Virus record (IMG/VR): IMGVR_UViG_3300037584_004022
Location: 1-29,465 of that record
Direction: 5' to 3' (one strand)
Length of the DNA: 29,465 nucleotides
Source of the DNA: a virus
Position 1 is the stretch's first letter. Each line of letters starts with the position of its first letter. Below the pieces are notes generated by a model. That model saw only the letters and a program-made list of their open reading frames with translations. It was not told where the DNA came from and searched no databases. The position numbers and the translations under genes were made by a program. Positions 849 to 26,100 of this stretch are shown one piece after another.

Positions 849-2171
849 ATGACTGATGAACAAAATATGGCAGATCTTTTTGCAAACCTCAACGCGATAT
901 CTGCTAACTCTGTATTAAGAGATAGACAAGTAAGGGGAGGTGGCGGAGGTAGTATGCCTATACAAGGCAATCAAGATCCAAATCCGCTAATAGCATTAAA
1001 TCCATATTTAGGTAAAAATGTAACAAGCTTTAACATGGGGGGAATGATGAATCAGAAAAAGATGTTAGCTCCATATATTAGTTCACAAATGATGACACCA
1101 CTAGGAAGATATAACAAAGGGGGAATGATGGAAGAAATGGATCCAAAAGGATTAAAATCTTTACCTAATTCTAATATTATCAACCCGTATACAGGTGTAC
1201 CTGAGTATGGATTTGGAGGATTTATCTCATCATTAGCAAGTTCAGTAGGTAATTTACTTGGAGGAGTAGGAGATGTTGTTGACGATGTTGTTACTCCGAT
1301 AACAGCACCTTTATTTGATGCAGCAGGAAATATAGTAGACCCAGTAGCACAAGCAGCAGGTGATATTGGTACAACAGCTATAGAAACAGCATCAGATGTT
1401 GCTGGTGATTTAGGTGGTTTAGGGGCAAATATTGTTCAAGAAGGGTTAAGTACAGTTAGTGATGTAGCTACTGATGTGGGGCAAAACATAATAGAACCAA
1501 TAGCAAGACCAGTGCTTGACGCAGCTGGTAATGTAATAGAACCTGTAGTACAAGGAGCGGCAAATGTTATACAGCCATTAGCTGGAGGATTTCTAGAGTT
1601 AGTAGATCAAGCTATACAAGGAGGTTTATCAGGAGTAAAAGGTTTTGGATTTGGCGTAATGGATGCTATAGGTGGTCTTGTAAACAATTTATTAGGTGGT
1701 GGTAGTGGAGGATCATCAGACATAGGTTTACGGCCGGGACCAGAACAAAAAAGAAAAGCAAATATAAAAAGAGGCTTTGGTTCTGCACCTACTTTTGGTC
1801 CAAATCCTAATATGAGAAATTTAGGATCCTTACAACAAAGAAATAAAAAACAAGATGCGCAAGCAATGGGTGATTTTGTATCACCAAAAGATAATCCGTT
1901 CATTACTCCTAATGTAGAAGAAGAATTAGATTATGCTGCACAAGGTATGAAAATGCCTAACTATAACATGGGGGGAAACATGGGAGGTTTTTACTCGCAA
2001 AAAGCAAACGAAGCCATAGCGGTAAACCAATTGAGCGGTCTAGTTTCAAATTTAGCTAAGCAAAGTGCAATGGGTCAAAGCCGTGGGTCAAGTAAAAAAA
2101 TGAATCAAGGCGGGTCTATGAAAAACAAACAAATGAAAAAACGTAATTTCACTAATGGTGGGCGTTTCTAA
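849..2171 (+). CDS. Gly/Ala/Val-rich probable virion protein with internal repeats and GG motifs
   Basis: A protein of 440 residues that I do not recognise as a named family. Residues 120-285 are a long stretch of Gly, Ala, Val, Ile and Asp with an amphipathic or membrane-active character. Within it a roughly 25-residue unit occurs twice: residues 147-171 (core TAPLFDAAGNIVDPV) and 214-238 (core ARPVLDAAGNVIEPV). The N- and C-terminal parts are Met/Asn/Lys-rich and carry a recurring motif, aromatic or Met plus two residues plus Gly-Gly, at about 62-65, 88-92, 372-376, 418-422 and 434-438; the last ends the protein (TNGGRF). Its stop overlaps the next start (TAATG), so it is translationally coupled to the lysozyme-like gene. 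A role as a packaged or membrane-interacting virion protein is inference from composition and context. Confidence 0.75.
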   Translation: MTDEQNMADLFANLNAISANSVLRDRQVRGGGGGSMPIQGNQDPNPLIALNPYLGKNVTSFNMGGMMNQKKMLAPYISSQMMTPLGRYNKGGMMEEMDPKGLKSLPNSNIINPYTGVPEYGFGGFISSLASSVGNLLGGVGDVVDDVVTPITAPLFDAAGNIVDPVAQAAGDIGTTAIETASDVAGDLGGLGANIVQEGLSTVSDVATDVGQNIIEPIARPVLDAAGNVIEPVVQGAANVIQPLAGGFLELVDQAIQGGLSGVKGFGFGVMDAIGGLVNNLLGGGSGGSSDIGLRPGPEQKRKANIKRGFGSAPTFGPNPNMRNLGSLQQRNKKQDAQAMGDFVSPKDNPFITPNVEEELDYAAQGMKMPNYNMGGNMGGFYSQKANEAIAVNQLSGLVSNLAKQSAMGQSRGSSKKMNQGGSMKNKQMKKRNFTNGGRF

Positions 2172-5017
2172 TGGAAAACGAAATAACGCTTGAAGAACTA
2201 CTCCAGATAATTATAAGAGATAAAGGAGGTACTCCGCAAGATTATTACGATCTTATGGATTACATTGCTTATCATGAAACAGGACCTGTAGCGCCAGGAC
2301 TGCCTGACCAAAGAATGAAACCTGATGCCAAGCAATGGAGAAAGGAAGACGGAAAATGGGTTCAAAATGCAACAGGTAAGGGGCTCTTTATGTTTGAGTC
2401 ACATGAAAATGCTGGCGGGAATATGGCCTCTAATTATCTGGCTCAAATATTAGAAGCAGAAGGAATAGATAAGCCGCAATGGCTAACTGATATATGGGCT
2501 GGTAAAAAAAGCGTAGATGCAAGCAAGCTAACAGCAGATCAACAAAAAATGCTTTTCTTAGCGTATCATAGAAACCACCCAAGATCAAATTTTAGCGAGC
2601 TATGGGACGGAAAAAAAGACAGGGCAACTTGGTGGGCAGATTATCACTGGAGTGGCTCTGAAGAAAAGTATGAAAGTGAACTTGCAAAGTTTAACTTAAG
2701 TCAAGAATCGCGCGATGCCGCTATCGCGGCAGAAAAGGAGCGTCAGGAAAAAGAACTAAAAGAGAATATGGCTCCTCATATATCAGACTCTAACGATTCT
2801 AACTTAGTGCCTAATAAAGAACAAGTAGAATCTCCTTTCAACTTCTTTAAACAACTTATGGATCAGATAAAGATGATGCAATCTGGTTTTGATGCAGGGA
2901 AAAAAGCAGGTGAGGTTACTAAGGATTTTGATAACGGCGGTGAATTTGAAGGAGAGATGTTGCCTGAAATAAACGTAGAAGCCTTATCAACACAATCTTA
3001 TAATCAGTTAAGCGATGCGGAAAAACAAGTCTATGATATATTTACAAATCCTTACACAGGAGAGTTTGGAATGTATTCTCCTTTTAAGTTAAGTGACGAA
3101 ACTACTGGTACAATACATTGGAGAGACGCCTTAAGTATGGTAAAGGGATCAAGGGTTGGAAATATATATAACACCCCTAATTCTATTTTTCAAGCTATAT
3201 ATGGTGGTGACGTCAGTGGCAAGGGTGATTTTAGACCACACGCAATAACAAACCCGTTTGAAGAGTTAACACGAGGAGGTTTAATAAGTAATTATTTAAG
3301 CGGTGGAAACATCTATGTACCCCCTATATCTGCTTTTGGCCCATATCCTACTGGGGTGGGAGCAGAAAATTATTTTGAAGACGTATTTGGAAAAACAAAG
3401 AGTGAGGGCGGATTTTTATATCCTGAGAAATTAAGAAAAAGTGGCGAGGTTGTCTATCCTAGCGGTGAGGAATACTACAGATCAGCTGTAGATGAAACTT
3501 ATAAAGAGCAGCAAGAAGAATATATGAACAATTTAATTGCGGAACTAGCGCATGTAAACCCAGAAGTGAGTACAGGCGTGCTAGACTCTTTAATTACCAT
3601 ACCTTCAAGAATTTTTAGAGGCATTAGAGATTTAGAATTTCCAGATGCTACAAACTATACAGATCCATATGATTTAGAATATAAAACGCATTATAGCCCA
3701 GATAGCGCTGAGCGAGGACTATTAGATTTATACTTAAATGAACCTTTTTCGGGGGTTTCAGAGTACGGTACATACAAACATACACCAGCTTCAGGTAATC
3801 TTTTTAATATGAACGCTATGGATGCGCTTGAGTATGCATCACCTATGTCTCCCTTTTTACCAAGCAATATTTTAATGAAGATTTTTAATTTCAATGAAGG
3901 TGGAGAATTTGGTTCGGATGTTATGGCAAATGTAATGCTACCAGAGTATACTGTATATGGAAACACAATGCCTCAAGGTCCTTATTCTCTTGAATATTTA
4001 GAATCTTTAGGTTTTCCACAACAAACAAGTTCACCATTGCCAACTTTTGATAGAAGTTATCAATTAAACGATCCATTTTTTAATCAAAGTGTTAGCTCTA
4101 CATATGTTAGTCCTAATGCATACACAGGAGATATACCAGCTTCTTATATTCCATCAGGACAACGTTTTTTTGAGCAAGGAAAGCCAGAACCGAGTTTTTT
4201 AGACAAGACTATTAATTTAATAGGACACCCTTTTGAAGCTTTTAAAAGGTCTATTCACGGTCAACCATTTTTTACAGGTACATTGGGAACAGGACAGTCC
4301 ATAGGAACTTTGGGTAACGTTTCTTCTGGATCAGCTTTTGATAATATACTTTTATCAAATTACGCTTCTAATTTGTACAGCGCAGCACAGAATCAGGACT
4401 ACGGCACTTTAGCAGCAGAAGCGACTTTAGGGTTGTTGCCTGGATTAAGAGGCAAAGGAGGTAGTTTGTATAGAGTTGTAGACGCTCCTACTGAAACTTT
4501 AGCTAGAAAATACGCTACAACTATACCTACAACTGGCACAGTAGGAAGAAGAACGGGCCTGCTAGGAGATATACAAGAAAACACACAATTTGACCATATA
4601 AGCGCAACAACAGATCCTAATTGGATATTAGGCGGGGGAGCCAACATAAATTTAATAGACAGATACGGGGGAGCAAATCCATTTATTGCAAAACTAAAAG
4701 GTGGGACTGAATTTGAAAGACAGCTTGCTAATATGAGTCTAGGGCCAGTGCAAAATGTAGGAGGAAGATTGCAATTTCAAAATATGCCAACCAGTAGATT
4801 TTTAGAAGGAATAATGCCAGGAACAGGAACGCAAATGTTTTTAAAAGGACCATTAGGGCAAGACATAAGAACACTTATTGGTCCAAAAGGGTATCAAGTA
4901 GCAGAAGTAGAAAATATATTACCTTTTGAAGAATTTTTAAGACAATACAATATGGACCCGTCCACGTTTTTTAAAAATTTTGATGAAGGAGGTAGATTAA
5001 ATCCATATACAATATGA
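2171..5017 (+). CDS. Large multidomain virion-associated protein: lysozyme-like N-terminus, possible ADP-ribosyltransferase-like C-terminus
   Basis: A protein of 948 residues. Residues 20-170 look like a lysozyme/transglycosylase-type domain of virion proteins: YHETG (34-38, Glu36 a candidate catalytic acid), GKGLFMFE (69-76), an AGG-containing helix, LTADQQKMLFL (120-130) and a Trp-rich HW motif near 159-160. Two similar modules begin at FDNGGEF (253-259) and FNEGGEF (574-580), each followed by MLPE (263-266, 589-592). The protein ends with FDEGGRL (937-943). Residues 764-935 carry three short elements in the order expected of Arg-Ser-Glu ADP-ribosyltransferases: LYRVV (Arg768), HISATTDP (809-816) and an ExE followed by ILP (912-918). 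It overlaps both neighbours (TAATG, ATGA). Cell-wall penetration by the first domain is fairly likely; the transferase assignment is tentative. Confidence 0.75.
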   Translation: MENEITLEELLQIIIRDKGGTPQDYYDLMDYIAYHETGPVAPGLPDQRMKPDAKQWRKEDGKWVQNATGKGLFMFESHENAGGNMASNYLAQILEAEGIDKPQWLTDIWAGKKSVDASKLTADQQKMLFLAYHRNHPRSNFSELWDGKKDRATWWADYHWSGSEEKYESELAKFNLSQESRDAAIAAEKERQEKELKENMAPHISDSNDSNLVPNKEQVESPFNFFKQLMDQIKMMQSGFDAGKKAGEVTKDFDNGGEFEGEMLPEINVEALSTQSYNQLSDAEKQVYDIFTNPYTGEFGMYSPFKLSDETTGTIHWRDALSMVKGSRVGNIYNTPNSIFQAIYGGDVSGKGDFRPHAITNPFEELTRGGLISNYLSGGNIYVPPISAFGPYPTGVGAENYFEDVFGKTKSEGGFLYPEKLRKSGEVVYPSGEEYYRSAVDETYKEQQEEYMNNLIAELAHVNPEVSTGVLDSLITIPSRIFRGIRDLEFPDATNYTDPYDLEYKTHYSPDSAERGLLDLYLNEPFSGVSEYGTYKHTPASGNLFNMNAMDALEYASPMSPFLPSNILMKIFNFNEGGEFGSDVMANVMLPEYTVYGNTMPQGPYSLEYLESLGFPQQTSSPLPTFDRSYQLNDPFFNQSVSSTYVSPNAYTGDIPASYIPSGQRFFEQGKPEPSFLDKTINLIGHPFEAFKRSIHGQPFFTGTLGTGQSIGTLGNVSSGSAFDNILLSNYASNLYSAAQNQDYGTLAAEATLGLLPGLRGKGGSLYRVVDAPTETLARKYATTIPTTGTVGRRTGLLGDIQENTQFDHISATTDPNWILGGGANINLIDRYGGANPFIAKLKGGTEFERQLANMSLGPVQNVGGRLQFQNMPTSRFLEGIMPGTGTQMFLKGPLGQDIRTLIGPKGYQVAEVENILPFEEFLRQYNMDPSTFFKNFDEGGRLNPYTI
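4460..4976 (+). other. Candidate R-S-E ADP-ribosyltransferase-like domain (residues 764-935 of the 948-aa protein)
   Basis: The domain is proposed from three motifs in the right order and at plausible spacing. These are a strand with Arg (LYRVV, 766-770), an S-x-T-T element (HISATTDP, 809-816) and an E-x-E followed by ILP (AEVENILP, 911-918). Known phage precedents are packaged, injected transferases such as T4 Alt. The motifs are short and I have no structural or database support, so this may be coincidence. Confidence 0.35.
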
Positions 5018-5828: not shown

Positions 5829-6014
5829 ATGCCAAAAGATGCGTGTTATCACAAAGTAGTATCCAGGTATGGCCCAAAGACTTCAGCATACAGAAGCGGG
5901 GCTATGGCTAAATGTAGAAAAGTTGGTGCGGCCAACTGGGGAAATAAAAGTAAAAAGAAAGGTGCTTCTGGAATGAAGTATAATTGTGGAGGTAGATATA
6001 AACAACACGATTAA
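5829..6014 (+). CDS. Small Cys-containing basic protein with C-terminal YKQHD tag (61 aa)
   Basis: The body contains MPKDACYHKVVSRY, SAYRSGAMAKCRKVGAANWG and a Lys-rich stretch. I recall similar short proteins from many marine phages and large algal viruses, where their role is unknown. Two Cys flank the basic core (Cys6, Cys29) and a third lies in YNCGG near the end. The protein ends GGRYKQHD, the first of four consecutive genes with the same type of tail. The very high Lys/Arg content suggests DNA or capsid-interior binding, by inference. Its leader is A-rich, and the following ATG (6016) comes one base after its stop. Confidence 0.75.
   Translation: MPKDACYHKVVSRYGPKTSAYRSGAMAKCRKVGAANWGNKSKKKGASGMKYNCGGRYKQHD
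5997..6014 (+). repeat. Gene-junction repeat copy 1 (encodes YKQHD-stop)
   Basis: TATAAACAACACGATTAA, first of four 18-base copies of consensus TATARACAAYWNGAYTAA placed at the 3' ends of four consecutive small genes. It differs from copy 2 at one base. Confidence 0.7.
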
Positions 6015-6015
6015 T

Positions 6016-6273
6016 ATGGCTGTACGTAAAACAAAAAAAGGTTTAGCCCTAAAAAGATGGTTTAAAGAAGATTGGAGAACTCCATCAGGTGAAAAGGACT
6101 ATAGTAAAGGTGAAAACACCTTTAGGCCTACTAAAAAAATAACAAAAGATACACCAAAAACTTGGTCACAATTATCAGCTGGTGAAAAACGTGCAGCTGC
6201 AAGAGAAAAAAACAAAAAAGGACGTGTTAGCAGGTATAAGAAAGGAGGTAAATATTATAAACAACATGATTAA
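6016..6273 (+). CDS. Small Lys-rich protein with C-terminal YKQHD tag (85 aa)
   Basis: I place the start at ATG 6016 (MAVRKTKKG), one base after the preceding stop. The longer in-frame ATG at 5986 would overlap the previous gene by 29 bases and add residues that look like read-through of its tail. The body has KKGLALKRWFKEDW (residues 7-20), a TFRPTKKITKDTPKTW segment and an SAGEKRAAAREKNKKGR helix. I recall this layout from small proteins of marine phages and algal viruses, function unknown. It ends in YKKGGKYYKQHD, combining the Gly-Gly motif and the shared tail. It is strongly basic, so a role in contact with packaged DNA is plausible but not shown. Confidence 0.75.
   Translation: MAVRKTKKGLALKRWFKEDWRTPSGEKDYSKGENTFRPTKKITKDTPKTWSQLSAGEKRAAAREKNKKGRVSRYKKGGKYYKQHD
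6256..6273 (+). repeat. Gene-junction repeat copy 2 (encodes YKQHD-stop)
   Basis: TATAAACAACATGATTAA, one base different from copy 1. The preceding GGAGGTA is also shared with copy 1, so similarity extends upstream through the Gly-Gly codons. Confidence 0.7.
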
Positions 6274-6289
6274 CTAAAAAATTAAAAAA

Positions 6290-6754
6290 ATGATGAAAAA
6301 AAAGAAAATGTACAAAAAAGGTGGTAAGGCAAAACCATTTAAGGTGCACATGATGTACGATCCAAAAACTGGAAAAGGGTACAAGGCTAACACTGTGGCA
6401 GATCACAATAGAATGGATAAAATGGGATATACACACGATAAGCCAAAAGCTGCATACGGAATGAAAATGAAAAAAATGGCTATGGGTGGTAAAAACTTGA
6501 AACCAGTAGATAAAAAGAATAATCCAGGATTAGCAAAACTTCCCACTGACGTTAGAAACAACATGGGCTATATGATGATGGGTGGTAAAGTTAAAGTTAA
6601 AAAAGCTCCAGGAGGAATGAAAATGGGCATGAAAAACAAAATGATGAACTATGCTGGTGGCGGTAAAATGTTAAACGGCATGTCTATGCAAAAAGCTAAT
6701 AAAGGAATGAAGATGAAGTATGGAATGGGTGGATCTTATAGACAATTAGACTAA
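6290..6754 (+). CDS. Lys/Met/Gly-rich protein with five GG motifs and C-terminal YRQLD tag (154 aa)
   Basis: The N-terminal third holds a compact domain (KPFKVHMMYDPKTGKGYKAN, then ADHNRMDKMGYTHDKP) that I recall from small marine-phage proteins without a known role. The rest is low complexity, dominated by Lys, Met, Gly and Asn. Gly-Gly motifs occur as YKKGGK (near residue 8), MAMGGK, MMMGGK, YAGGGK and YGMGGS, the last leading into the tail YRQLD. The start follows an A-rich leader (ATTAAAAAA before ATG). ATG 6293 is an equally possible start one codon later. Its stop overlaps the next start (TAATG). Very high positive charge suggests DNA or anionic-surface binding, by inference. Confidence 0.75.
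   Translation: MMKKKKMYKKGGKAKPFKVHMMYDPKTGKGYKANTVADHNRMDKMGYTHDKPKAAYGMKMKKMAMGGKNLKPVDKKNNPGLAKLPTDVRNNMGYMMMGGKVKVKKAPGGMKMGMKNKMMNYAGGGKMLNGMSMQKANKGMKMKYGMGGSYRQLD
6737..6754 (+). repeat. Gene-junction repeat copy 3 (encodes YRQLD-stop)
   Basis: TATAGACAATTAGACTAA, followed directly by TGGC of the next gene. With four flanking bases on the 3' side it matches copy 4 at all but one position. Confidence 0.7.
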
Positions 6755-7092
6755 TGGCGACACCTGCATGGCAAAGAAAAGAAGGTAAAAGCCCGTCTGG
6801 CGGTTTAAACAAAAAAGGGGTAGCGTCTTACAGAAAAGCAAACCCAGGAAGTAAATTAAAAACCGCAGTAACGACTAAACCTTCTAAATTAAAAAAGGGT
6901 TCTAAAGCTGCAAAGCGTAGAAAGTCTTTTTGCGCAAGAATGAAAGGAATGAAAAAGAGATTAACCTCAGCAAAAACAGCTAGAGATCCTAATTCAAGAA
7001 TTAATAAGTCTTTGCGTAAATGGAATTGTGGTAGTGGTTGTAAAATGCCAGCCAGACCAGTTTCTAGATCCTTTTATAGACAATTAGATTAA
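6754..7092 (+). CDS. Small basic protein, DUF6321-like, with C-terminal YRQLD tag (112 aa)
   Basis: The N-terminus TPAWQRKEGKSPSGGLNKKG (residues 3-22) is typical of short phage proteins that I associate with DUF6321. The second half, RRKSFCARMKGMKKRLTSAK followed by DPNSRINKSLRKWNC, is a second conserved block seen in many phages. Both assignments are from memory. Cys residues occur in FCARM and WNCGSGC. The protein ends SFYRQLD, the fourth copy of the shared tail, although the preceding Gly-Gly motif is replaced by CGSGC some residues upstream. It is strongly basic. The gene is coupled to both neighbours through TAATG junctions. Confidence 0.8.
   Translation: MATPAWQRKEGKSPSGGLNKKGVASYRKANPGSKLKTAVTTKPSKLKKGSKAAKRRKSFCARMKGMKKRLTSAKTARDPNSRINKSLRKWNCGSGCKMPARPVSRSFYRQLD
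7075..7092 (+). repeat. Gene-junction repeat copy 4 (encodes YRQLD-stop)
   Basis: TATAGACAATTAGATTAA, followed by TGGC, as in copy 3 with a single base change. This is the last copy; the next gene (7092-7310) lacks the tail. Confidence 0.7.
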
Positions 7093-7310
7093 TGGCCAAG
7101 GAACCAAAGTACGATTTACAGTATTTATACAGCTCTTATAAAAAAAAATTTGAGAGTTTAGATATAGATAAGGCTAATCAGTACAATGACCTTGCCATTA
7201 AACTACATGGATCTGATTTACGTGAAATGTATAATGCTAAATTAGAAGCAAAAGAACAAAGGTCTGGACCGTTTGGTTTAGGCAGAAACAAAAGAGTAAA
7301 GTATGGGTAA
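7092..7310 (+). CDS. Hypothetical protein immediately upstream of terminase (72 aa)
   Basis: A short charged, probably helical protein with a YLYSSYKKKFESLDIDKANQ segment and a basic end (GRNKRVKYG). It lacks the YRQLD tail of the four preceding genes. The start shares TAATG with the preceding stop, and its end overlaps the terminase start by eight bases, so it is tightly coupled to terminase translation. That position would suit a small terminase subunit, but 72 residues without a recognisable DNA-binding motif is short for one. No function can be assigned. Confidence 0.65.
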   Translation: MAKEPKYDLQYLYSSYKKKFESLDIDKANQYNDLAIKLHGSDLREMYNAKLEAKEQRSGPFGLGRNKRVKYG

Positions 7311-9120
7311 AATAAAGTTTGATCCGCAAAAATACCGACCAGTACCTAATAATGGGCATCCAGATCTGAATCCAGATTCGGTTGCTTATCAAGAGTATTG
7401 GGCAAGAGAGACGGAAAGGTGTATTGATGGTTTTAAACCAAAGGGTATGAACAAAATATCGGGCAAGTATTACTTTTATCTTAATTATTATAAGATATTA
7501 GGTAATGATGGTACCTCTGGTAACCGAAAAACACTAATACACCCTTGGTATAGAGCTATGGATCACGAATACTTTGATACCATAGAGACTTGTAAGGCTG
7601 AAGGTAAAGGAATGATTGTAATAAAAGCCAGAGACAAGGGTTTTTCTTATATGAATTCAGGCGCTGTAGCACACGAGTACACATTCTTTCCTTTTAACGA
7701 TGTTGGTGTAGCAGCAGGGCTACAGGCCACGGCAGATGCGTTCTTTGACAAAACAAAAAAGGGCTTGAATGGTATTCATCCAAATTTCAAACACTCTGTG
7801 CTAAAAGACACGGATGGTATTATGCGTTCTGGCTATAAACAAAAGAACAAAGATGGAAAATGGGAGATTGGAGGATATCAATCAACTATCATATGCAGAA
7901 CCATGGACAATCCAGAGGTATTTAAAGGGGAAAGGGTTTCACTTATGGTGTTTGAAGAGGCTGGAGAGTTTAAAAAGCTTAAAAATGCTTACATGTCGTC
8001 AAAAGCGTGTTTCATGGACGGTGATTTGCAGTTTGGAGTACCTATTGTTGGTGGGACAGGTGGTGATATATCAAAAGCTAGTAAAGATTTTATGGATATG
8101 TATTACAGTTCTGACGCATACAACTTAATACCAGTATTTATACCTGCATCTAAAGCTTACTACGGTTTCTTTGATATACAAACAGGCAAAGAAGATGAAA
8201 ATGGCGCAAAAGAAAAGTTAATAGCTGACAGAGAAGACATACAGAGTTCAGGAGATAATGAAGCTTACAATTTACATATACAAAACTACCCGTTAACAAT
8301 AGAAGAGGCGTTTTTAAATACACACTCTGCACGATTTGATATATCTCTACTTAACGCACAAAGATCTAGAATATTGTCAAGTAAAGATTACAGAAGTCAA
8401 ATACAAAGTGGATATTTAGATTGGGAGTTAGGAATAGACGAACCAGTTGTAAAATGGAGGCCACATCCTAATGGTCCTTATAAAATATTGTCACATCCAG
8501 AGCCTGAATATAGCAATTTAGACATAGGAGGTATAGATTCTTATGATCAAGATCAAGCTGGAGCGTCAGATTCTTTGGGAAGTGCAATAATTTATCGTAG
8601 ATTTGCAAATACTGACATGTCAAGCGATTACGTGGTTGCAGAGTACACCGATAGACCTGATAAAAAAGAAGATTTTTGGGATGGGTGTTTAAAACTTGCT
8701 GTGTATTATAACGCAAAAATGTTGGTAGAATATACAAAAATAGGTATTTTAGATTACTTTAAACGTATGAATGCTTTAAAATATTTGAAAGAAAAACCAG
8801 AAAGCGCGCATAATCCTGGTACAAAAACTAGAAACAGATATGGCGTGCATATGAACAAGCAAGTAAAATCACTATTAGAGGATTTGATAGACGATTATTT
8901 GAGGGAAAGCGTGGAAGATATCTGGTTTATAGATTTAATTGATGAATTAGCAAATTATGGATTGCAAAATACTGACCGAGCTATGGCTTTTGGTCTTTGT
9001 TTAATTCACAACATAGATAATTATAGAATGCAGGCGAGAGAGAAAAAAGAAGAAATAGTAGACATAGGATTGAAATATTACAAAATGGGGTACAATGGTT
9101 TACCGCAACAAATAAATTAA
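7303..9120 (+). CDS. terL: Large terminase subunit (ATPase and nuclease)
   Basis: A protein of 605 residues, the usual size of the DNA-packaging motor subunit. The ATPase domain shows a degenerate Walker A in VIKARDKGFSYMNSG (107-120), a Walker B VSLMVFEEAGE (212-222) and a coupling motif GGTGG (250-254). The C-terminal RNase H-like nuclease has IGGIDSYDQDQAG (408-420) with acidic metal ligands, LVEYTKIG (474-481) and the third acidic site in NTDRAMAFG (556-564). The protein would dock on the portal encoded next, pump DNA into the prohead and cut concatemers. The KARDKGFS form of Walker A is common in terminases of Bacteroidota phages, to my knowledge. The start overlaps the previous gene by eight bases. 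Confidence 0.93.
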   Translation: MGKIKFDPQKYRPVPNNGHPDLNPDSVAYQEYWARETERCIDGFKPKGMNKISGKYYFYLNYYKILGNDGTSGNRKTLIHPWYRAMDHEYFDTIETCKAEGKGMIVIKARDKGFSYMNSGAVAHEYTFFPFNDVGVAAGLQATADAFFDKTKKGLNGIHPNFKHSVLKDTDGIMRSGYKQKNKDGKWEIGGYQSTIICRTMDNPEVFKGERVSLMVFEEAGEFKKLKNAYMSSKACFMDGDLQFGVPIVGGTGGDISKASKDFMDMYYSSDAYNLIPVFIPASKAYYGFFDIQTGKEDENGAKEKLIADREDIQSSGDNEAYNLHIQNYPLTIEEAFLNTHSARFDISLLNAQRSRILSSKDYRSQIQSGYLDWELGIDEPVVKWRPHPNGPYKILSHPEPEYSNLDIGGIDSYDQDQAGASDSLGSAIIYRRFANTDMSSDYVVAEYTDRPDKKEDFWDGCLKLAVYYNAKMLVEYTKIGILDYFKRMNALKYLKEKPESAHNPGTKTRNRYGVHMNKQVKSLLEDLIDDYLRESVEDIWFIDLIDELANYGLQNTDRAMAFGLCLIHNIDNYRMQAREKKEEIVDIGLKYYKMGYNGLPQQIN

Positions 9121-9124
9121 GAAA

Positions 9125-11425
9125 ATGGAAAAAACGTACAAGTCAATGCCATCAATGGTGGTTGCAGAAAAAGACAAGACTCAGGATTGGTGTAGGTCTG
9201 TTTTGTTAGCTGTAACACAATACATGGGACACGAAAGTGGTGAATATCACTCTAACAGAACGAAAGATATAAGAAATTATCAAATATACAACGGGCAGTT
9301 GTCGCAAGGAGATTATACCTACATAACTGAGCAGTATGGATTAACATATCCAGCTAGACTTGTAAATTATCCCATAATAGCACCAAAGATTGATTTGTTA
9401 ATTGGTGAAGAATTGAGAAGACCTATGGATATTAAGGTTACTACAGTAAATAAAAGTGCAGTGTTAAGAAAGCATGATCACAAAGTAGGGTTAATTATGC
9501 GTGACCTATTAAAGGACATACACAGCGAGATGCAAGAAAAATTAAACATAGATGTTCTAATGGAAGGCCAGGGAATGCCTGTACCAGAAGATATAGAAAC
9601 ATATATGAAATATAACTACCGAGAAATGGTAGAAGAAACAGCACAAGATGGTTTAGAATATGTAACAAATAGATACAATCTAAAAGACGTTATGAAAGAA
9701 GGTTTTAGAGACCTTTTAGTTACTGGTAAAGAGTTTTATAGGGTATCAATTCAAAATGGAGATCCTTATGTAAGAAGAATAGATCCTAGAAACATAGTTT
9801 ATGATGATTCTTTTCATTCTGACTATTTAGATGACGCAGGATGGGTCGGTGAAGAAAGATACTTATCTGTAAACGAAATAAATGATGAATTTAAAGACAG
9901 TTTAACAACAGAAGATTTAATAGAGTTAGATAAAATGCGTAATTTGTATGTTGGAGGAGACATGGACAATTATAACAGTAGCTTTGAATGGATAGATGCA
10001 GCGCACGGAAGAGATAATCGTATTAGAGTGGTAACTTGTGAATGGAAGTCTCTTAGAGCTCTAAAATATAAAATATCAGAGAATAAATATAACCCAGAAA
10101 GACCTTTTAGAAAAGCTGTGCCTGATACTTACAGAAGAAGAAAAGGGGACAAGATAGAAACGAAATGGGTAGATGATATTTGGGAGGCTACCATGATAGG
10201 TGGTAAAATATTAGTAAATGCTAGGCGTAGAGACAATCAAGTTAGAAGTGTGGACGATCCAGGTAAAACTCCGCTATCATATGTTGGGTGTATATACGGA
10301 AACACAACAGGTAAATCTACATCTATGGTAGACTTATTAGATAATATACAAATGCTTTACAATATAGTGGTATACCAAATAGAACTAGCAATGGCAAGAT
10401 CAGGTGGAAAGGCTGTTGTCTATGACGTGTCGCAATTACCTACAAATGTTGGTATGGATATGCAGCAAGTTCTTTATCACTTAAAAACAGATGGTATAAT
10501 ACCTATAAATTCTAAAGATGAAGGTAATCAGCTGCAATCATTCAATCAATTTCAACAAGTAGACTTTACCCTGTCGCAATCAGTGCAGCAACTTATAAAT
10601 TTAAAAGTTATGCTAGAAGATATGGCTGGTCAAATATCTGGAGTTACAAGACAAAGAGAGGGAGCTGTAGGTCAGTATGAATATGTTGGTAACGTGCAGA
10701 GAAGTGTGGTGCAGTCTGCAACAATAACTGAAAGTTGGTTTTATTCACACTCTGAATGTAAACAAAGAGTAATGGAAAGAGTTTGCAATCTTATGAAAGT
10801 GTGTTGGGCTAAAGGAAAAAAGGCTGGAATGATATTGGGTGATGGTGCATACAAGTTTTTGAATGTAATGCCAGATATTGCCTTACAAGACTATGGTGTT
10901 TATGTTGGTGATAGCGGTAAAGATGACTCTATGAAGCAAGTAGTGCAGCAATTAGCTCAATCTGCTTTACAAGCAGGTACTATAGACATGTTAGGCGTAG
11001 TAAAAGTTTTAAAAGCTGATACAATGACTGAAGCGGAAAAAGTTTTAGAACAAGCTATGACGGAAATGCAAAAACAACAACAACAAGCTATGGAGCAACA
11101 AATGCAAGCTCAACAAGCTGCTGCAGAAGCTAAAAAACAAGACTTTGAAGCTGAAGCGCAACTTAAACAAATGGACAACGAGGCTAAATTACAAGTTGCA
11201 CAAATTAGCGCAGAGTCAAGAATGAAGGTTGCAGAAATACAGGCTGATGTTGATAGAGACATACATGACACCAAGTCGCAAAACGAAATACGTAAAAAAG
11301 CGGCTGATATTTATGTAGAAAGACAAAATAAAAAAGAAGATCAACAAAGAGAAGATGATATAAAAAAGGCAGAGACAGTTGATACAACTGTAGATGACTT
11401 AAGAAGAGCTCAACAAAAGTTATAA
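9125..11425 (+). CDS. Portal protein
   Basis: A protein of 766 residues located four bases after the terminase gene. The N-terminal third has the portal-type segment APKIDLLIGEELRRPMDIKV (about 87-106). The central part carries a long helix region around MLYNIVVYQIELAMARSGGK (about 407) and LEDMAGQISGVTRQREGAVG (about 496), typical of portals of podoviruses and Bacteroidota phages. From about residue 635 to 760 it is a Gln/Ala/Glu/Lys-rich coiled coil with a run of CAA codons (EMQKQQQQAMEQQM), which fits the barrel-type C-terminal helix of large portals. Twelve copies would form the ring at the packaging vertex through which DNA enters and leaves. The nature of the C-terminal coil is inferred. 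Confidence 0.9.
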   Translation: MEKTYKSMPSMVVAEKDKTQDWCRSVLLAVTQYMGHESGEYHSNRTKDIRNYQIYNGQLSQGDYTYITEQYGLTYPARLVNYPIIAPKIDLLIGEELRRPMDIKVTTVNKSAVLRKHDHKVGLIMRDLLKDIHSEMQEKLNIDVLMEGQGMPVPEDIETYMKYNYREMVEETAQDGLEYVTNRYNLKDVMKEGFRDLLVTGKEFYRVSIQNGDPYVRRIDPRNIVYDDSFHSDYLDDAGWVGEERYLSVNEINDEFKDSLTTEDLIELDKMRNLYVGGDMDNYNSSFEWIDAAHGRDNRIRVVTCEWKSLRALKYKISENKYNPERPFRKAVPDTYRRRKGDKIETKWVDDIWEATMIGGKILVNARRRDNQVRSVDDPGKTPLSYVGCIYGNTTGKSTSMVDLLDNIQMLYNIVVYQIELAMARSGGKAVVYDVSQLPTNVGMDMQQVLYHLKTDGIIPINSKDEGNQLQSFNQFQQVDFTLSQSVQQLINLKVMLEDMAGQISGVTRQREGAVGQYEYVGNVQRSVVQSATITESWFYSHSECKQRVMERVCNLMKVCWAKGKKAGMILGDGAYKFLNVMPDIALQDYGVYVGDSGKDDSMKQVVQQLAQSALQAGTIDMLGVVKVLKADTMTEAEKVLEQAMTEMQKQQQQAMEQQMQAQQAAAEAKKQDFEAEAQLKQMDNEAKLQVAQISAESRMKVAEIQADVDRDIHDTKSQNEIRKKAADIYVERQNKKEDQQREDDIKKAETVDTTVDDLRRAQQKL

Positions 11426-20141: not shown

Positions 20142-23100
20142 ATGGCAAAAAAAAGACAGCAAAATCCAGCCCAAACTGGACAATCAACTCCAGAGGGTTT
20201 TACGCAAGGAATGGTAAGCGACCTTGATCCAAGGTTTCAGCTTAAGGGCAGTTATGCGGATGCAAAAAACATTAGGCTTACTAATTCAGAAGGAGACACG
20301 TTTACTGTAGAAAATATAGAAGGTAATAGCTTGTTTGTAGACTTATCTACCTTTCACATAGACACTCCTTCAGATCAATATCAAATGCCAAACAACGAAT
20401 CGTACCCAACATTTTTTGATAGAGGTCCCAGTGGAACTGTTGAAAACAATTATCCTTTAGGAAATAGAGCTTCTATTGTAGGAAACATTTCTTTTCAAAA
20501 TAAAATTATATTAGTAGTTGTAGCTAGATTTGATTGGGTAAGATTACCAGACGGCACAAGAGTAACAAGCAACCCTAATTTATCTGACGACACTCAAGCG
20601 AATTGGTCAAATGATAATACGGAAATAGACAGAACTATATTTTTACAAGTAGATTTTGATTCTAATTTTAATGTAAGCAAAGTTACAGACTTAAGAGTAT
20701 GTTATAAATTCAGCGATGATAACTACCCAGACTTAAACATGGATTTAGATCGCCCAATAAGAATAGAATATATAATTGAAAACGAAAATATACAAAGAAT
20801 ATATTGGACTGATAATAAAAACCCATTAAGAACTTTAAATTTACAACAGAAAGGGTTAGACGAATTAAGCATTTCGTCTTTAGATATAACTCCTATAGTA
20901 AAACCTTCACAGCCTGTTTTAGACTTGACGCTGCATGGCAACTTACCAGTAGGCGTGTATCAATACTCTTTTAAATATATAGGAGAAGACGGAGGAGAGT
21001 CTACCTTTTCTCCATTAAGTAATATGTATCATGTGTCTGACCAATCTTTTTCAAATACAAGCACATTTGGTGGAGGACCAAAAGGTAATTTAGGATCGCA
21101 AGGTTTTCAGATTAAAATTAACGGTATTGATGATAATTTTCAATATATAGAATTGTATTCTTTATTTTACGACACATTAAATCAACCGCCTAGAGTCGCG
21201 GTAGTTGCTAGACAACAAGTATTTGGAACTTCAGCTACATTTCAACATACCAATTGGAATAATGAGGTAGAAAATGGATTAGAAGAAATATTAATAGAGT
21301 CTAATACTTTTGATGTGTGTAAAGATATAGCTATTAAAGATAATATTTTATTTGCTGCAAACCTAAGACAAAAAAGAAATTACGTTTCAGAAAAAGAATG
21401 GAATGTAAAAGTTTTAAGGTGGAGAATACATCCAGGCGGAGCTGGTGTTGGAGGTGTGCCTAAATTAGATGCAATGTTAACCTGTAGTGACACGCAGGTA
21501 AAACATTATACAACTTCAGGAACATATCCTAATCATACCGCGGTTGAAATTACAAATGGACTTTCTGAAAGTACTGTTACAAAAGATTACAATGACGATC
21601 GTGTGGGTCATGGACAATTATTAGGCGCCCCATCAACAATGTACAACTCAACAGCTTATAACGATCATGACAAATTTAGTTATTTAGGAATGTTAAATGT
21701 TCCAATGTGGACAACTTATTTATCAAATCAAAGACTTGAAACTGGTGGGGGAATCTCTGCTGTTCATGACTATTTTACATATAGATTTTTGTCAGATAGA
21801 ATGACGCTAGGTGCAGAGAGTTTTGAATATGCGTCAAATTTATTAGGAGGGTGTCGTGTCACTTTTGCTTTACAGGAAAAAGTAGCAGATCAAGCTGGAA
21901 ACGCGCATAGTACACCTTTTATATCTGCTGCAAACGAAGGCGATCAAATAACAACAAATTATTCGGTAAATCAAGCTACTGAAGAAGGAGCGGTATTTAA
22001 AACCTCTATGTCTTTAGGCGGGTCGCAAGATCCATATGCAGCAGGAGACAAAAGAGGATATCAAAGAAGTGATATATATAGGTTTGGAGTACAGACATAC
22101 GATTTAAATGGTTCTCCAGGAAATGTTCTATGGATAGGAGATATAGAAACCCCGAATCAACATGATCTTGTAAGAATGGTTGATATAGAAAATGACAATA
22201 GTGCAAATGGCCAATCTTATAACCCTTATAGACCAACGATATTAGGTTCTTATAACAATAACCCTGCAGTAGTTTATCATGGTGGCGCGACTCCAGGGGC
22301 CAGTTTAGTTTCTGGTAAATGCATGAAATCACACCCGATAGTAAAAGATTACAGGCTTTCACACATATATGGTCACGCTATAGCCCCGCCAGATTTGGAA
22401 TGGTTTACCAATAGAGATACAGGAGGTATAACAAACACAGACGCATATATAAATAGCGTAGGTGATAATTTAGCTTTAAGCCGTGTGCCGGGTCCTGGAG
22501 GAACTCAAAGTGCATTTAAATACCCTTCTACCCAGGCCAATGCAAGAAACAAAGCCTTGCCAGTGTTTTCTGGAGGAAATAATACATATTCAGGTTATAA
22601 TTTGCCTGGGCACACAGACACGCATTATTTATATGATTTAGCAGTAGTATTTGAATTTATCATACCCAATAATGTTATTAAAAAAATATCTGGATTTAGA
22701 GTTGTTAGAGCAGAAAGAAAAGAAGACGATAGAAGAATTGTACAACAGGGATTACTAAATCAAACAGCTCAATACGGAAGCGCAGAGCACGGAATGAAGT
22801 ATGGTTATGACGATTCTCGTTTTTGCAGAAAAGATAACGAAGCATTTGATGACGATCCAGTATTTGCAAACGAATGGAATGATCAAGCTACAGGCACTCT
22901 AACACCAACATTGCCAGAGCAACCAGAATATAACGTCTACTTAAATGGATATTTAGGTCTTGCAGAGAATTCACATATGGCCTTTTATGACGATTCTGTT
23001 TCAGATGGAAAGGCTACTACGGGGGGAAATACAGAAGGAAATGTTTTTTTCTGGCCAGAAAGAGAAGATACAAAAAAATATGGAGCGGGTACCGCGCAAA

Positions 23101-26100
23101 AAGTAAGAGGTGCGCTTATGGACCAAGGAGCCTACAGTGGGCAAGTAGCTTATGAAGGTAATGGAGGGCCAAATGTATACGGAAGACATTTTAGACATTC
23201 AGGATATTTTGGTAGTTTTGATAAATCGCATATAGTTAAAAATTCCGAAACAGAAGATCATGCTAAAGAAAACCACAATCACATAAGCGCAGATATCTTT
23301 ACATTAGACGCACCAGACAGTGCTTTTGGAATTAGGCCTTACTCGTACAGAGATGGAGATATGCTAAGAATAGATTGTGTCTTAAAATTATCTGATGAGG
23401 TAAGGTATGATAATCAGTCCTCATATTCATGGGGATCAAATTACGCACATCATTGGTGGTCTCACGGAAGAGGAATTTCTAAAAAAGGCCAAGACTTAAC
23501 AGGAAACGATCTTGTTCCTACAAGATATTCATCTAATGGTCAAGTTGAATTGTGGAAGCCAGAAAATACAAATTCTTCTCTTTTTGAGGCAATGAGTTTT
23601 GCTGGAGGAAAAGAAATAGATAAAGACTACAGGGTTTTAGTAGGTAAATATTATTGTTACGAGCCATATTTTGGTATTGGTATGGAGATAACTGGTGGTG
23701 ATTTTGCGGGATCAGGTCATGAAGGTGGTGGTAATTATAAACCAGATCGTCAATATGGGTGGCAACTGCCTATTTCTGCAGCTAAAGAACTTTCAGACGG
23801 GGAAATAGTACCTAGTGGGTTTTTCAAAAAATCAGATAAAATAGAAAAGGGAAGAGTAAATGGATTTTCTAATAATACATTAGGTTTTTGTACGCTAGCC
23901 AGAACAGTCGGTTCAGGTGCTAATGATTTAACTTCATTAGAAAGACACCATTATTATGTGTTTGGATCTGTTTCACCAAACTTACCTTTTATAGGTCATG
24001 ATGGAAACGGTAATCAAACACAAAAATCAGACGTAAAAGAAGAAGATTATACGTATGACACTGTTTCAACAGTGCAAATGGGATTAAGAACCATTCTTGT
24101 AGAAATAAACACAAAAATAAATGAAGTAAGAAAATATGGCCCAGGACCTTCAGACACATTTTTTGATGTTAGATATAACGGAGTACATAGATATAACTCA
24201 TGGTTTGCGCCTATAAATTTAGGGGCTTTATACGAAACGTCTGCTTGGAAAGCACAACAACTTACACCTCCTAGCGGTGCCGCAGGGGGAGGAACATTAG
24301 CAGATTCTTCAACTTATAGTAATACCTATCAAATACCTTTACTTCAAGGATTTTTAACTGAATATGGAGAGGTTGGAACACAAATAAATGGAGATATTTC
24401 ACATGACGGAGGTCATACAAATGATTTTTCTAATAGAAATAAAAGTCTTATACCATATAAACATTTATGCTCTATAGTTAGGTATACTACACCTTATGGT
24501 GGTTACACAAAAGGAGCAATAGAAAAAACACGCTGGATTCCATGCGGTAATTTTCACAGGGTGTCGGCAGATGACCCTGCCTTTAATAATCCTGATATAC
24601 CTCAAGGACACGCATGTAAGGTTTTTGGAGGAGATACTTTTGTAACTCTATACTCACATCAAAAAACTTCTAGTCCTTACATGAAAAAATCTGCTTCAAG
24701 GTTTCAACTGTTCCCTGTTGAGTCTTTTGTAAATACAGATATGAGAAGCGGATTAACACTTGCAGCAGGAGATACTGTAGTTGGTAAAAACATGAACGAA
24801 CCACCATTTAGTAATGATTGGTTGTACAATAGTGTATATTCACAAACTAACAATATAAAATCTGGTTTAGCTGTAGACGAAGAAGAATTTGACAACAGTT
24901 TAAATTTACCTTATGAAATAGCGTATTCTAAAACAAAAATATTAGGACAAAGAACAGACGCGTTTAGACAATTTCCTATAAATCAATTTCATGACATGGA
25001 AGGATTGTATGGCGAAATAAACAGAATAGTAAATTACAAAAACGAAATATATGTTTTACAGGATAATGCTTTTGCTAAGCTTCTTGTGAATCCTTTGTCA
25101 ATGTTGAGCGATGATCAAGGAACATCGTTATTTACGGGGACAGGAGAGACGGTAGAAAATCATATATACATATCTACTAAATTTGGAACACGTCATAGAT
25201 TCAGTGTAACACAAAGTGAAAAATCTTTATATTTTGTAGACACTAACTTTGCAAGATTATTTAAATATGATACAGAAAAACTAATATCATTAGGTGACGC
25301 GTTAGGACAAAGAAGTTATTTAAAGTATATAATTCATGATTGGAAACAGCTTACACATTCTACATGTCAATCATCACATCCAGGTCAAACGCACGACACT
25401 TTATATGGAAGATTAAATTCAGTAGAAAAGCCAGACTTAGATAGAAATTACCTTTCAGACAACCCATTAAATTTTTTAGGAATAACTTCTATATTTGATT
25501 ATAACACAAAAGAATTAATGGTGACGTTTCACAACTCAAGCTTTGGTGATAAAAACAATAAAAGACAAGATTTTGCAAGACCGACAGACAACCATATAAT
25601 GTCAAGACCAAAAGATGGTGTGCCTGTAGGTGTGTCAGAAACTTTAGTATATAGTGAAGCAATAAATGCATTTACTTCAAAATACAGTGTTGCTCCTCCA
25701 CAATGGATAGCAGGTGGTTCAGGCACTTTTATATTGTGCCCTGAAAACGAAATTAACGTAACTTCAATAGCTAGCTTTAGTTTAAGTACAGGTCTTTCTA
25801 ATAGTGGTTCAAATTTCCCGTACAATGAACATGGGTCAAACAGTTATAGGTTTAAAAACGAAAGATGCAATCCTTTAAAACTTTGGATGTGGGGTGTGCA
25901 TAAACAAGAAAAGAAAAATCACTTTTTTGGAAAAAAAGGAGATGTTTTTGAAAGAGTGTCTAGAACTTCAACTATAGATGCAAGTCAGGGCGCACAAAAC
26001 GCTTACATACCTTTAGCAGGATCATCAGGAGATATTCCAGACGAAAGCTATATTGTAAAGGTTATAAACTCTGAAGCTAGTAGCAGTAAAATATTTGATA

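What the first reader, a model, noticed from the sequence alone, without database searches (positions are those of the whole stretch)
4460..4976. Possible packaged ADP-ribosyltransferase fused behind a lysozyme-like domain
The C-terminal 185 residues have LYRVV, then HISATTDP about 43 residues later, then AEVENILP about 100 residues after that. This order (Arg, Ser-Thr-Ser-like, Glu-x-Glu followed by ILP) is the signature of the R-S-E class of ADP-ribosyltransferases. T4 Alt is a precedent for a transferase carried in the capsid and injected with DNA. A protein that combines a wall-opening domain and such an effector would be an entry-coupled takeover device.
Basis: partly seen in the sequence, partly recalled or inferred. 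Interest (0 to 1): 0.62.

Follow-up and report, generated by a model that had tools for sequence, protein, structure and literature searches.

The report
Phage entry lysozyme with swappable effector
A marine crAss-like phage gene joins a probable cell-wall-cutting domain, used to enter the bacterium, to a strongly conserved tail domain that may be an ADP-ribose-transferring enzyme; relatives carry no tail, a different one or a probable metal protease at the same spot, so it looks like one more injected multi-tool protein of a type already described.

Summary
In detail: gene 2171-5017 (948 aa) has LYRVV at 766, HISATTDP at 809 and AEVENILP at 911, within a separate C-terminal domain (753-948). 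This is a crAss-like phage, and the gene lies just upstream of terminase and portal. The N-terminal ~180 residues are lysozyme-like: an AF2 model of pLDDT 92 from 49 relatives, with Glu36 invariant at the end of a helix before a beta-hairpin. In 27 of 35 close relatives this domain stands alone; in 8 it carries an extension: the window's (3 contigs), an unrelated-looking one (L007), HExxH metallopeptidase-like ones (3) or a short one. The window's C-terminal domain is the most constrained part of the protein (dN/dS 0.08-0.12 against the window). The ADP-ribosyltransferase reading is plausible but not established: arom-R and ExE motifs are present, but the Ser motif is SAT rather than STS, Ser-ExE spacing is 101 (71 in T4 Alt), no profile matches, and fold prediction failed (pLDDT 35). 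The missing Pfam match is weak counter-evidence: T4 ModA and ModB have none either. Catalytic-residue conservation could not be tested: only two relatives, 95-97% identical, were found. Lysozyme+ART+metallopeptidase polyvalent proteins are already described, so this is a new member of a known kind.

The parts
2171..5017 (+). 948-aa polyvalent-type gene: lysozyme-like domain + linker modules + C-terminal effector candidate
   Evidence: ORF; full-length relatives only L001/L002
2171..2710 (+). N-terminal lysozyme/transglycosylase-like domain (residues 1-180)
   Evidence: 49-sequence alignment A4 with invariant E36, Q55, G69, G71, F73, E76, W104, W155, H159; AF2 pLDDT 92.4, pTM 0.86; LysM fused to the same domain in L135
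2276..2278 (+). Glu36, putative catalytic acid, end of helix 22-36, before a beta-hairpin (57-64)
   Evidence: invariant in 49 sequences; DSSP of model
2711..2926 (+). linker (residues 181-252), region in which the standalone versions of the gene end
   Evidence: L003/L008/L025 and others stop here
2927..3889 (+). middle module 1 (253-573), fastest evolving part (dN/dS about 0.5), starts with FDNGGEF
   Evidence: no family match
3890..4426 (+). middle module 2 (574-752), starts with FNEGGEF; leads into the C-terminal domain
4427..5014 (+). C-terminal domain (753-948): candidate ADP-ribosyltransferase-like effector
   Evidence: dN/dS 0.08-0.12 in window pairs, lowest of the gene; motif order; AF2 uninformative
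4472..4474 (+). Arg768 of LYR (arom-R motif candidate)
   Evidence: sequence; invariant in 3 near-identical homologues
4601..4609 (+). Ser811-Ala-Thr813 (STS-motif candidate, off consensus S-[TS]-[STQ])
   Evidence: sequence; consensus from PMC6829252
4904..4912 (+). Glu912-x-Glu914 followed by NILP ([QE]-x-E motif candidate)
   Evidence: sequence; compare T4 Alt NEMEVILPRG
4979..5014 (+). C-terminal tail FDEGGRLNPYTI, shared with the otherwise different L007 protein (RFDEGGVKNPYIA)
849..2171 (+). upstream gene (440 aa), amphipathic repeats, weak tape-measure/tail matches, GG motifs and C-terminal FTNGGRF; probable entry/cargo partner
   Evidence: phrog_1204 E 6.5e-6
7303..9120 (+). terminase large subunit (context)
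   Evidence: phrog_6681 E 2e-94
9125..11425 (+). portal protein (context)
   Evidence: phrog_6547 E 6e-118, PF16510
12575..14113 (+). crassvirus-type major capsid protein (context; identifies the phage)
   Evidence: PF23898 E 9e-38

Best explanation
The gene encodes a virion-associated polyvalent-type protein of a crAss-like phage. Its N-terminal lysozyme-like domain cuts peptidoglycan while the genome is being delivered, and its C-terminal domain is an enzymatic effector carried into the cell on the same chain. In the window lineage that effector is most likely an ART-superfamily domain of R-S-E type (R768, S811/T813, E914 as catalytic Glu with E912 before it) that modifies a host macromolecule from NAD+ at the start of infection, as T4 Alt does. 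Shown here: the domain boundaries, the lysozyme-like model with its invariant Glu, the swapping of what follows it between relatives, and the strong selection on the C-terminal domain. Inferred: packaging and ejection, NAD+ chemistry, and target. My separate estimates: lysozyme-like fold 0.9; independent functional effector 0.85; carried in the virion 0.65; ART-superfamily fold 0.5.
For: Crass-type capsid, portal, terminase and ring protein in the window. Gene between a TMP-like amphipathic protein and terminase/portal; the lysozyme gene also lies beside a GG-motif-rich protein of the same kind in a distant phage-like contig, L179. N-domain: 49 relatives, invariant E36 and GxGLF motif, pLDDT 92. 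Best though insignificant PDB match is lambda lysozyme, with SLT transglycosylases in the viral list. A relative carries LysM. Same-position alternatives: none in 27 of 35; window type 3, L007 type 1, HExxH type 3, short type 1. HExxH plus a conserved downstream DPxEQQ in four metallopeptidase-like versions. C-domain dN/dS 0.08 (window-L001) and 0.12 (window-L002), lowest of all segments in those pairs. LYR / ISATT / ExE-x-ILP in ART order, resembling T4 Alt LYR...FVSTS...EMEVILP. The literature describes head-packaged ARTs, and polyvalent proteins with lysozyme, ART and metallopeptidase domains (PMC5512222, PMC9503650).
Against: No family or PDB sequence match for the C-domain. AF2 model at pLDDT 35, so no fold support. 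The Ser motif is S-A-T, outside S-[TS]-[STQ]. S-to-ExE spacing is 101, against 71 in T4 Alt and 34 in XopAI; R-to-ExE is 144, against 91-98 in T4 Alt/ModA/ModB. ILP is followed by FEEFLRQ rather than the P-x-G turn of Alt/ModA/ModB. Only 95-97% identical homologues, so catalytic-residue conservation is untested. No direct evidence of packaging. Foldseek gives no significant PDB match for the N-domain.
Confidence: 0.5

Rival explanations
1. The architecture is as described (lysozyme-like carrier plus injected C-terminal effector), but the C-terminal domain is a different enzyme or toxin fold, for example a nuclease, protease or other alpha/beta domain, and the R/S/E order is coincidence.
For: Relatives put other effectors at the same place, including HExxH domains. 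Medium motif in about 1% of unrelated ORFs. Off-consensus SAT and long spacing. No profile or fold support.
Against: LYR, S-x-T and ExE-x-ILP all occur in the right order, and the strict form is not reached in 20,000 shuffles. [quoted passage not shown]
Confidence: 0.3
2. The whole extension (253-948) is structural: an anchoring, scaffolding or ejection-channel region of the virion that keeps the lysozyme in place, with no catalytic activity of its own.
For: Repeated F[DN]xGG motifs shared with the neighbouring TMP-like gene. Tail FDEGGxxNPY shared between window and L007 despite different modules. Middle module 1 evolves fast.
Against: Most relatives do without any extension. Alternative extensions contain an HExxH...E protease-like signature. 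The C-domain is far more constrained than the middle modules.
Confidence: 0.15
3. The protein is a late endolysin-like lysis enzyme or lytic accessory, not an entry protein.
For: Lysozyme-like domain with LysM in one relative.
Against: Gene position beside the TMP-like gene, terminase and portal. Fusion to large, variable, non-wall domains is typical of entry polyvalent proteins (PMC5512222).
Confidence: 0.05

Closest known systems
Polyvalent proteins of phages (Iyer et al. 2017, PMC5512222)
   Same: Large multidomain late-gene protein; lysozyme domain combined with other effector domains; ART and zincin-like metallopeptidase are typical partners; encoded next to virion genes.
   Different: Here in crAss-like phages; a ~220-aa lysozyme-like gene is usually alone and only sometimes extended, with mutually exclusive C-termini; the window protein itself has no HExxH peptidase and no Pfam-recognisable domain.
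T4 Alt (head-packaged ART, R-S-E class)
   Same: LYR, then Ser motif, then ExE-x-ILP order; presumed virion carriage.
   Different: Alt has STS, spacing 25/71 (window 43/101) and a PRG turn after ILP; it matches PF03496 at 6e-36 while the window domain matches nothing; Alt shows no lysozyme domain in its Pfam scan.
N4-like virion RNA polymerase polyproteins carrying ART, lysozyme and metallopeptidase domains (PMC5512222)
   Same: Entry-time delivery of combined domains in podoviruses.
   Different: No RNA polymerase module recognised in this gene.
PhicrAss001 cargo proteins gp45/gp46 (PMC10172136)
   Same: Crassvirus ejected cargo; a TMP/channel-like partner is expected next to the effector.
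   Different: The terms lysozyme and peptidoglycan do not occur in that paper; homology to gp45/gp46 was not tested.
MEP301 gp41 (Methylophilales phage, hypothetical protein)
   Same: Same N-terminal domain (30% identity), between terminase and head-tail connector genes.
   Different: Standalone 190 aa, no extension.

Membership tests
R-S-E class ADP-ribosyltransferase | arom-R motif [YFL]-R-x in strand 1 | tested here: met
   L-Y767-R768-V; definition from PMC6829252; strand position not verified
R-S-E class ADP-ribosyltransferase | STS motif S-[TS]-[STQ] | tested here: not met
   S811-A812-T813; Ala at position 2 is outside the consensus. This lowers the membership claim.
R-S-E class ADP-ribosyltransferase | [QE]-x-E in the ARTT loop | tested here: met
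   E912-V-E914, followed by NILP; loop position not verified
R-S-E class ADP-ribosyltransferase | Split beta-sheet NAD-binding fold | tested here: inconclusive
   AF2 from 3 near-identical sequences: pLDDT 35.5, pTM 0.28
R-S-E class ADP-ribosyltransferase | Arg and Glu invariant among diverged homologues | tested here: inconclusive
   Only 95-97% identical homologues found. L007's last module cannot be aligned with confidence.
R-S-E class ADP-ribosyltransferase | Profile match to a known ART family | tested here: not met
   No Pfam/PHROGs/NCBIfam hit to E 10. Control: Alt hits PF03496, but the real ARTs ModA and ModB do not, so the test is insensitive.
R-S-E class ADP-ribosyltransferase | NAD+-dependent transferase activity | not testable with these tools
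   biochemical assay needed
Lysozyme / lytic transglycosylase superfamily (N-domain) | Catalytic Glu at the end of a helix followed by a beta-hairpin | tested here: met
   E36 invariant in 49 sequences, helix 22-36, strands 57-59 and 62-64
Lysozyme / lytic transglycosylase superfamily (N-domain) | Significant structural or profile match to a known member | tested here: inconclusive
   Best PDB match is lambda lysozyme 1am7 at E 1.5, prob 0.14; SLT proteins weak in BFVD; no profile match
Polyvalent proteins (Iyer et al. 2017) | Several functionally distinct domains on one chain, one of them a lysozyme, in late virion gene context | tested here: met
   Lysozyme-like domain plus separately swapped, constrained C-domain; terminase and portal downstream
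Polyvalent proteins (Iyer et al. 2017) | Protein is packaged and injected | not testable with these tools
   needs virion proteomics

The most novel reading that the evidence does not exclude
A lysozyme-like carrier in crAss-like phages acts as an interchangeable delivery head: lineages swap the C-terminal effector (ART-like, zincin-like, or none), and the recurrent F[DN]xGG motif marks the module joints as a shared processing or packaging signal.
Probability: 0.3. Interest if true: 0.6.

Novelty: new member of a known kind. Interest (0 to 1): 0.4.

Why it matters
It extends the polyvalent-protein theme to uncultured crAss-like phages and gives a compact natural series (standalone lysozyme, lysozyme plus protease-like, lysozyme plus ART-like) for asking what the effector adds to infection. 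If the C-domain is an ART, NAD+-dependent host modification at entry would be predicted for this group; keyword searches of the held library found no paper describing that for crAss-like phages, which is weak evidence of absence.

Tried and rejected
Searches for relatives of the C-domain (viral contigs, phages, plasmids, genome contigs, 21 whole relative contigs, all ORFs in fetched loci) found only L001 and L002. AF2 on those three sequences failed. L007's C-terminal module (VYRAVD...) looked homologous by eye, but hhalign aligns only the last 14 residues and MAFFT gives an unconvincing 27%, so it was not used as evidence. The L007 match to gut crAss phages cr110_1/cr11_1 was rejected: it hits a conserved protein of the replication region next to SSB. 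A separate LYRGT...LFTTTKP...FEKGLPKRFL ORF in L143/L144 resembles the ART order but has no database match and no hhalign link. PDB sequence matches of the C-domain are ankyrin-type noise. The tail-motif scan found mainly the neighbouring TMP-like gene of related phages, not new effectors.

Full report
Observation. The reported motifs are real and at the stated positions in the 948-aa frame 2171-5017. The order hYR, hSxT, ExE-x-hLP is unusual: 0.13% of composition shuffles reach a medium pattern and none of 20,000 reach a strict one, but about 1% of unrelated ORFs in related contigs reach the medium pattern. It is a fair lead and no more.

What phage. The window carries a crassvirus capsid protein (PF23898, 9e-38), P22-type/crass portal, terminase and CrAss ring protein 2. 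The closest contigs are all IMG/VR metagenome viruses, 260 terminase relatives in all. The window is therefore a fragment of a crAss-like phage; calling the group marine rests on my recollection of several of the metagenome ids and on the seawater MEP301 relative, not on a tool result.

N-terminal domain. Residues 1-180 belong to a family of at least 49 non-redundant sequences, usually a standalone 158-244 aa gene. E36 in the HE[ST] motif is invariant, with GxGLF[MQ][FY]E about 33 residues on. AF2 gives pLDDT 92.4 with the Glu at the end of helix 22-36 before a hairpin, which is the lysozyme-superfamily layout (established knowledge). Foldseek finds no significant solved structure; the top hit is lambda lysozyme at prob 0.14, and viral SLT proteins follow below two unnamed phage proteins. 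One relative carries a LysM domain. I take it as a divergent lysozyme or transglycosylase.

C-terminal side. Of 35 close relatives with a complete gene, 27 end at about residue 218-244 and 8 are extended: window/L001/L002; L007 with a different 520-aa extension; L101/L106 and L102 with an HExxH domain (DHE[TV]xHLLSP with a conserved downstream DPxEQQxR; two more partial members L032 and L044); and L114 with 135 extra residues. The extension point is thus a hotspot for alternative modules. In the window lineage the last 196 residues are the most constrained: dN/dS 0.08 and 0.12 against the window, versus 0.23-0.28 for the lysozyme-like domain and about 0.5 for middle module 1. In the L001-L002 pair the value is 0.35, on very few changes (dS 0.03), so that pair is not informative. 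This supports a functional domain.

Is it an ART? For: arom-R and ExE motifs, and similarity of layout to T4 Alt (LYR478, FVSTS503, E574MEVILP). Against: SAT instead of STS, longer spacing, no PxG turn after ILP, no profile match, failed fold prediction. Controls show that T4 ModA and ModB also lack a Pfam match, so that absence carries little weight. I put the ART fold at 0.5.

Mechanism. Entry-coupled delivery is inferred from position (TMP-like gene upstream; terminase and portal downstream), from the crassvirus cargo model (PMC10172136) and from published polyvalent proteins (PMC5512222, PMC9503650). The lysozyme-like part would open the wall; the C-domain would act on host macromolecules early. 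None of these steps is shown directly.

Comparison and novelty. Lysozyme, ART and zincin combinations in injected phage proteins are published, so this is a new member of a known kind. What is less expected is the clean series of standalone, protease-like and ART-like versions at one locus in crAss-like phages.

Noticed in passing
window 849-2171, 2171-5017, 5986-6273, 6290-6754: A [FYM]xxGG motif is enriched in these four nearby genes (5, 3, 1 and 4 copies against shuffle means of 0.30, 0.29, 0.01 and 0.39) and absent from terminase, portal and capsid. In the 948-aa gene it sits at the module joints and near the C-terminus.
   Followed up: partly
window 5829-7092 (four consecutive small genes): Four small proteins end in a similar tag: RYKQHD, YYKQHD, SYRQLD, FYRQLD; the same endings recur in L001, L003, L008 and L009. 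Possible shared packaging or cleavage tag.
   Followed up: no
L101:1834-3501, L102:1915-3903, L032, L044: HExxH (DHE[TVL]xHLLSP) plus conserved DPxEQQxR: metallopeptidase-like extension on the same lysozyme-like carrier, no Pfam match.
   Followed up: partly
L143:3143-3775 and L144:2622-3254: A separate ORF close to the lysozyme-like gene with LYRGT...SLFTTTKP...FEKGLPKRFL, in an ART-like order, without any database match.
   Followed up: partly
window 2960-2986 and 3935-3961 (approximate): MLPEINVEA and MLPEYTVYG follow the GG motifs at the starts of the two middle modules; repeated module-start sequence of unknown meaning.
   Followed up: no
window 20142-26927: 2261-aa protein downstream of the ring/tail genes, not examined; size would fit a crassvirus virion RNA polymerase subunit or large tail protein.
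   Followed up: no
L179 (contig CAKZOW010000026.1): A MAG contig labelled 'uncultured archaeon' carries this lysozyme-like gene next to a large GG-motif-rich protein and a 1330-aa phage-like protein: probably a phage contig binned with an archaeal MAG.
   Followed up: partly
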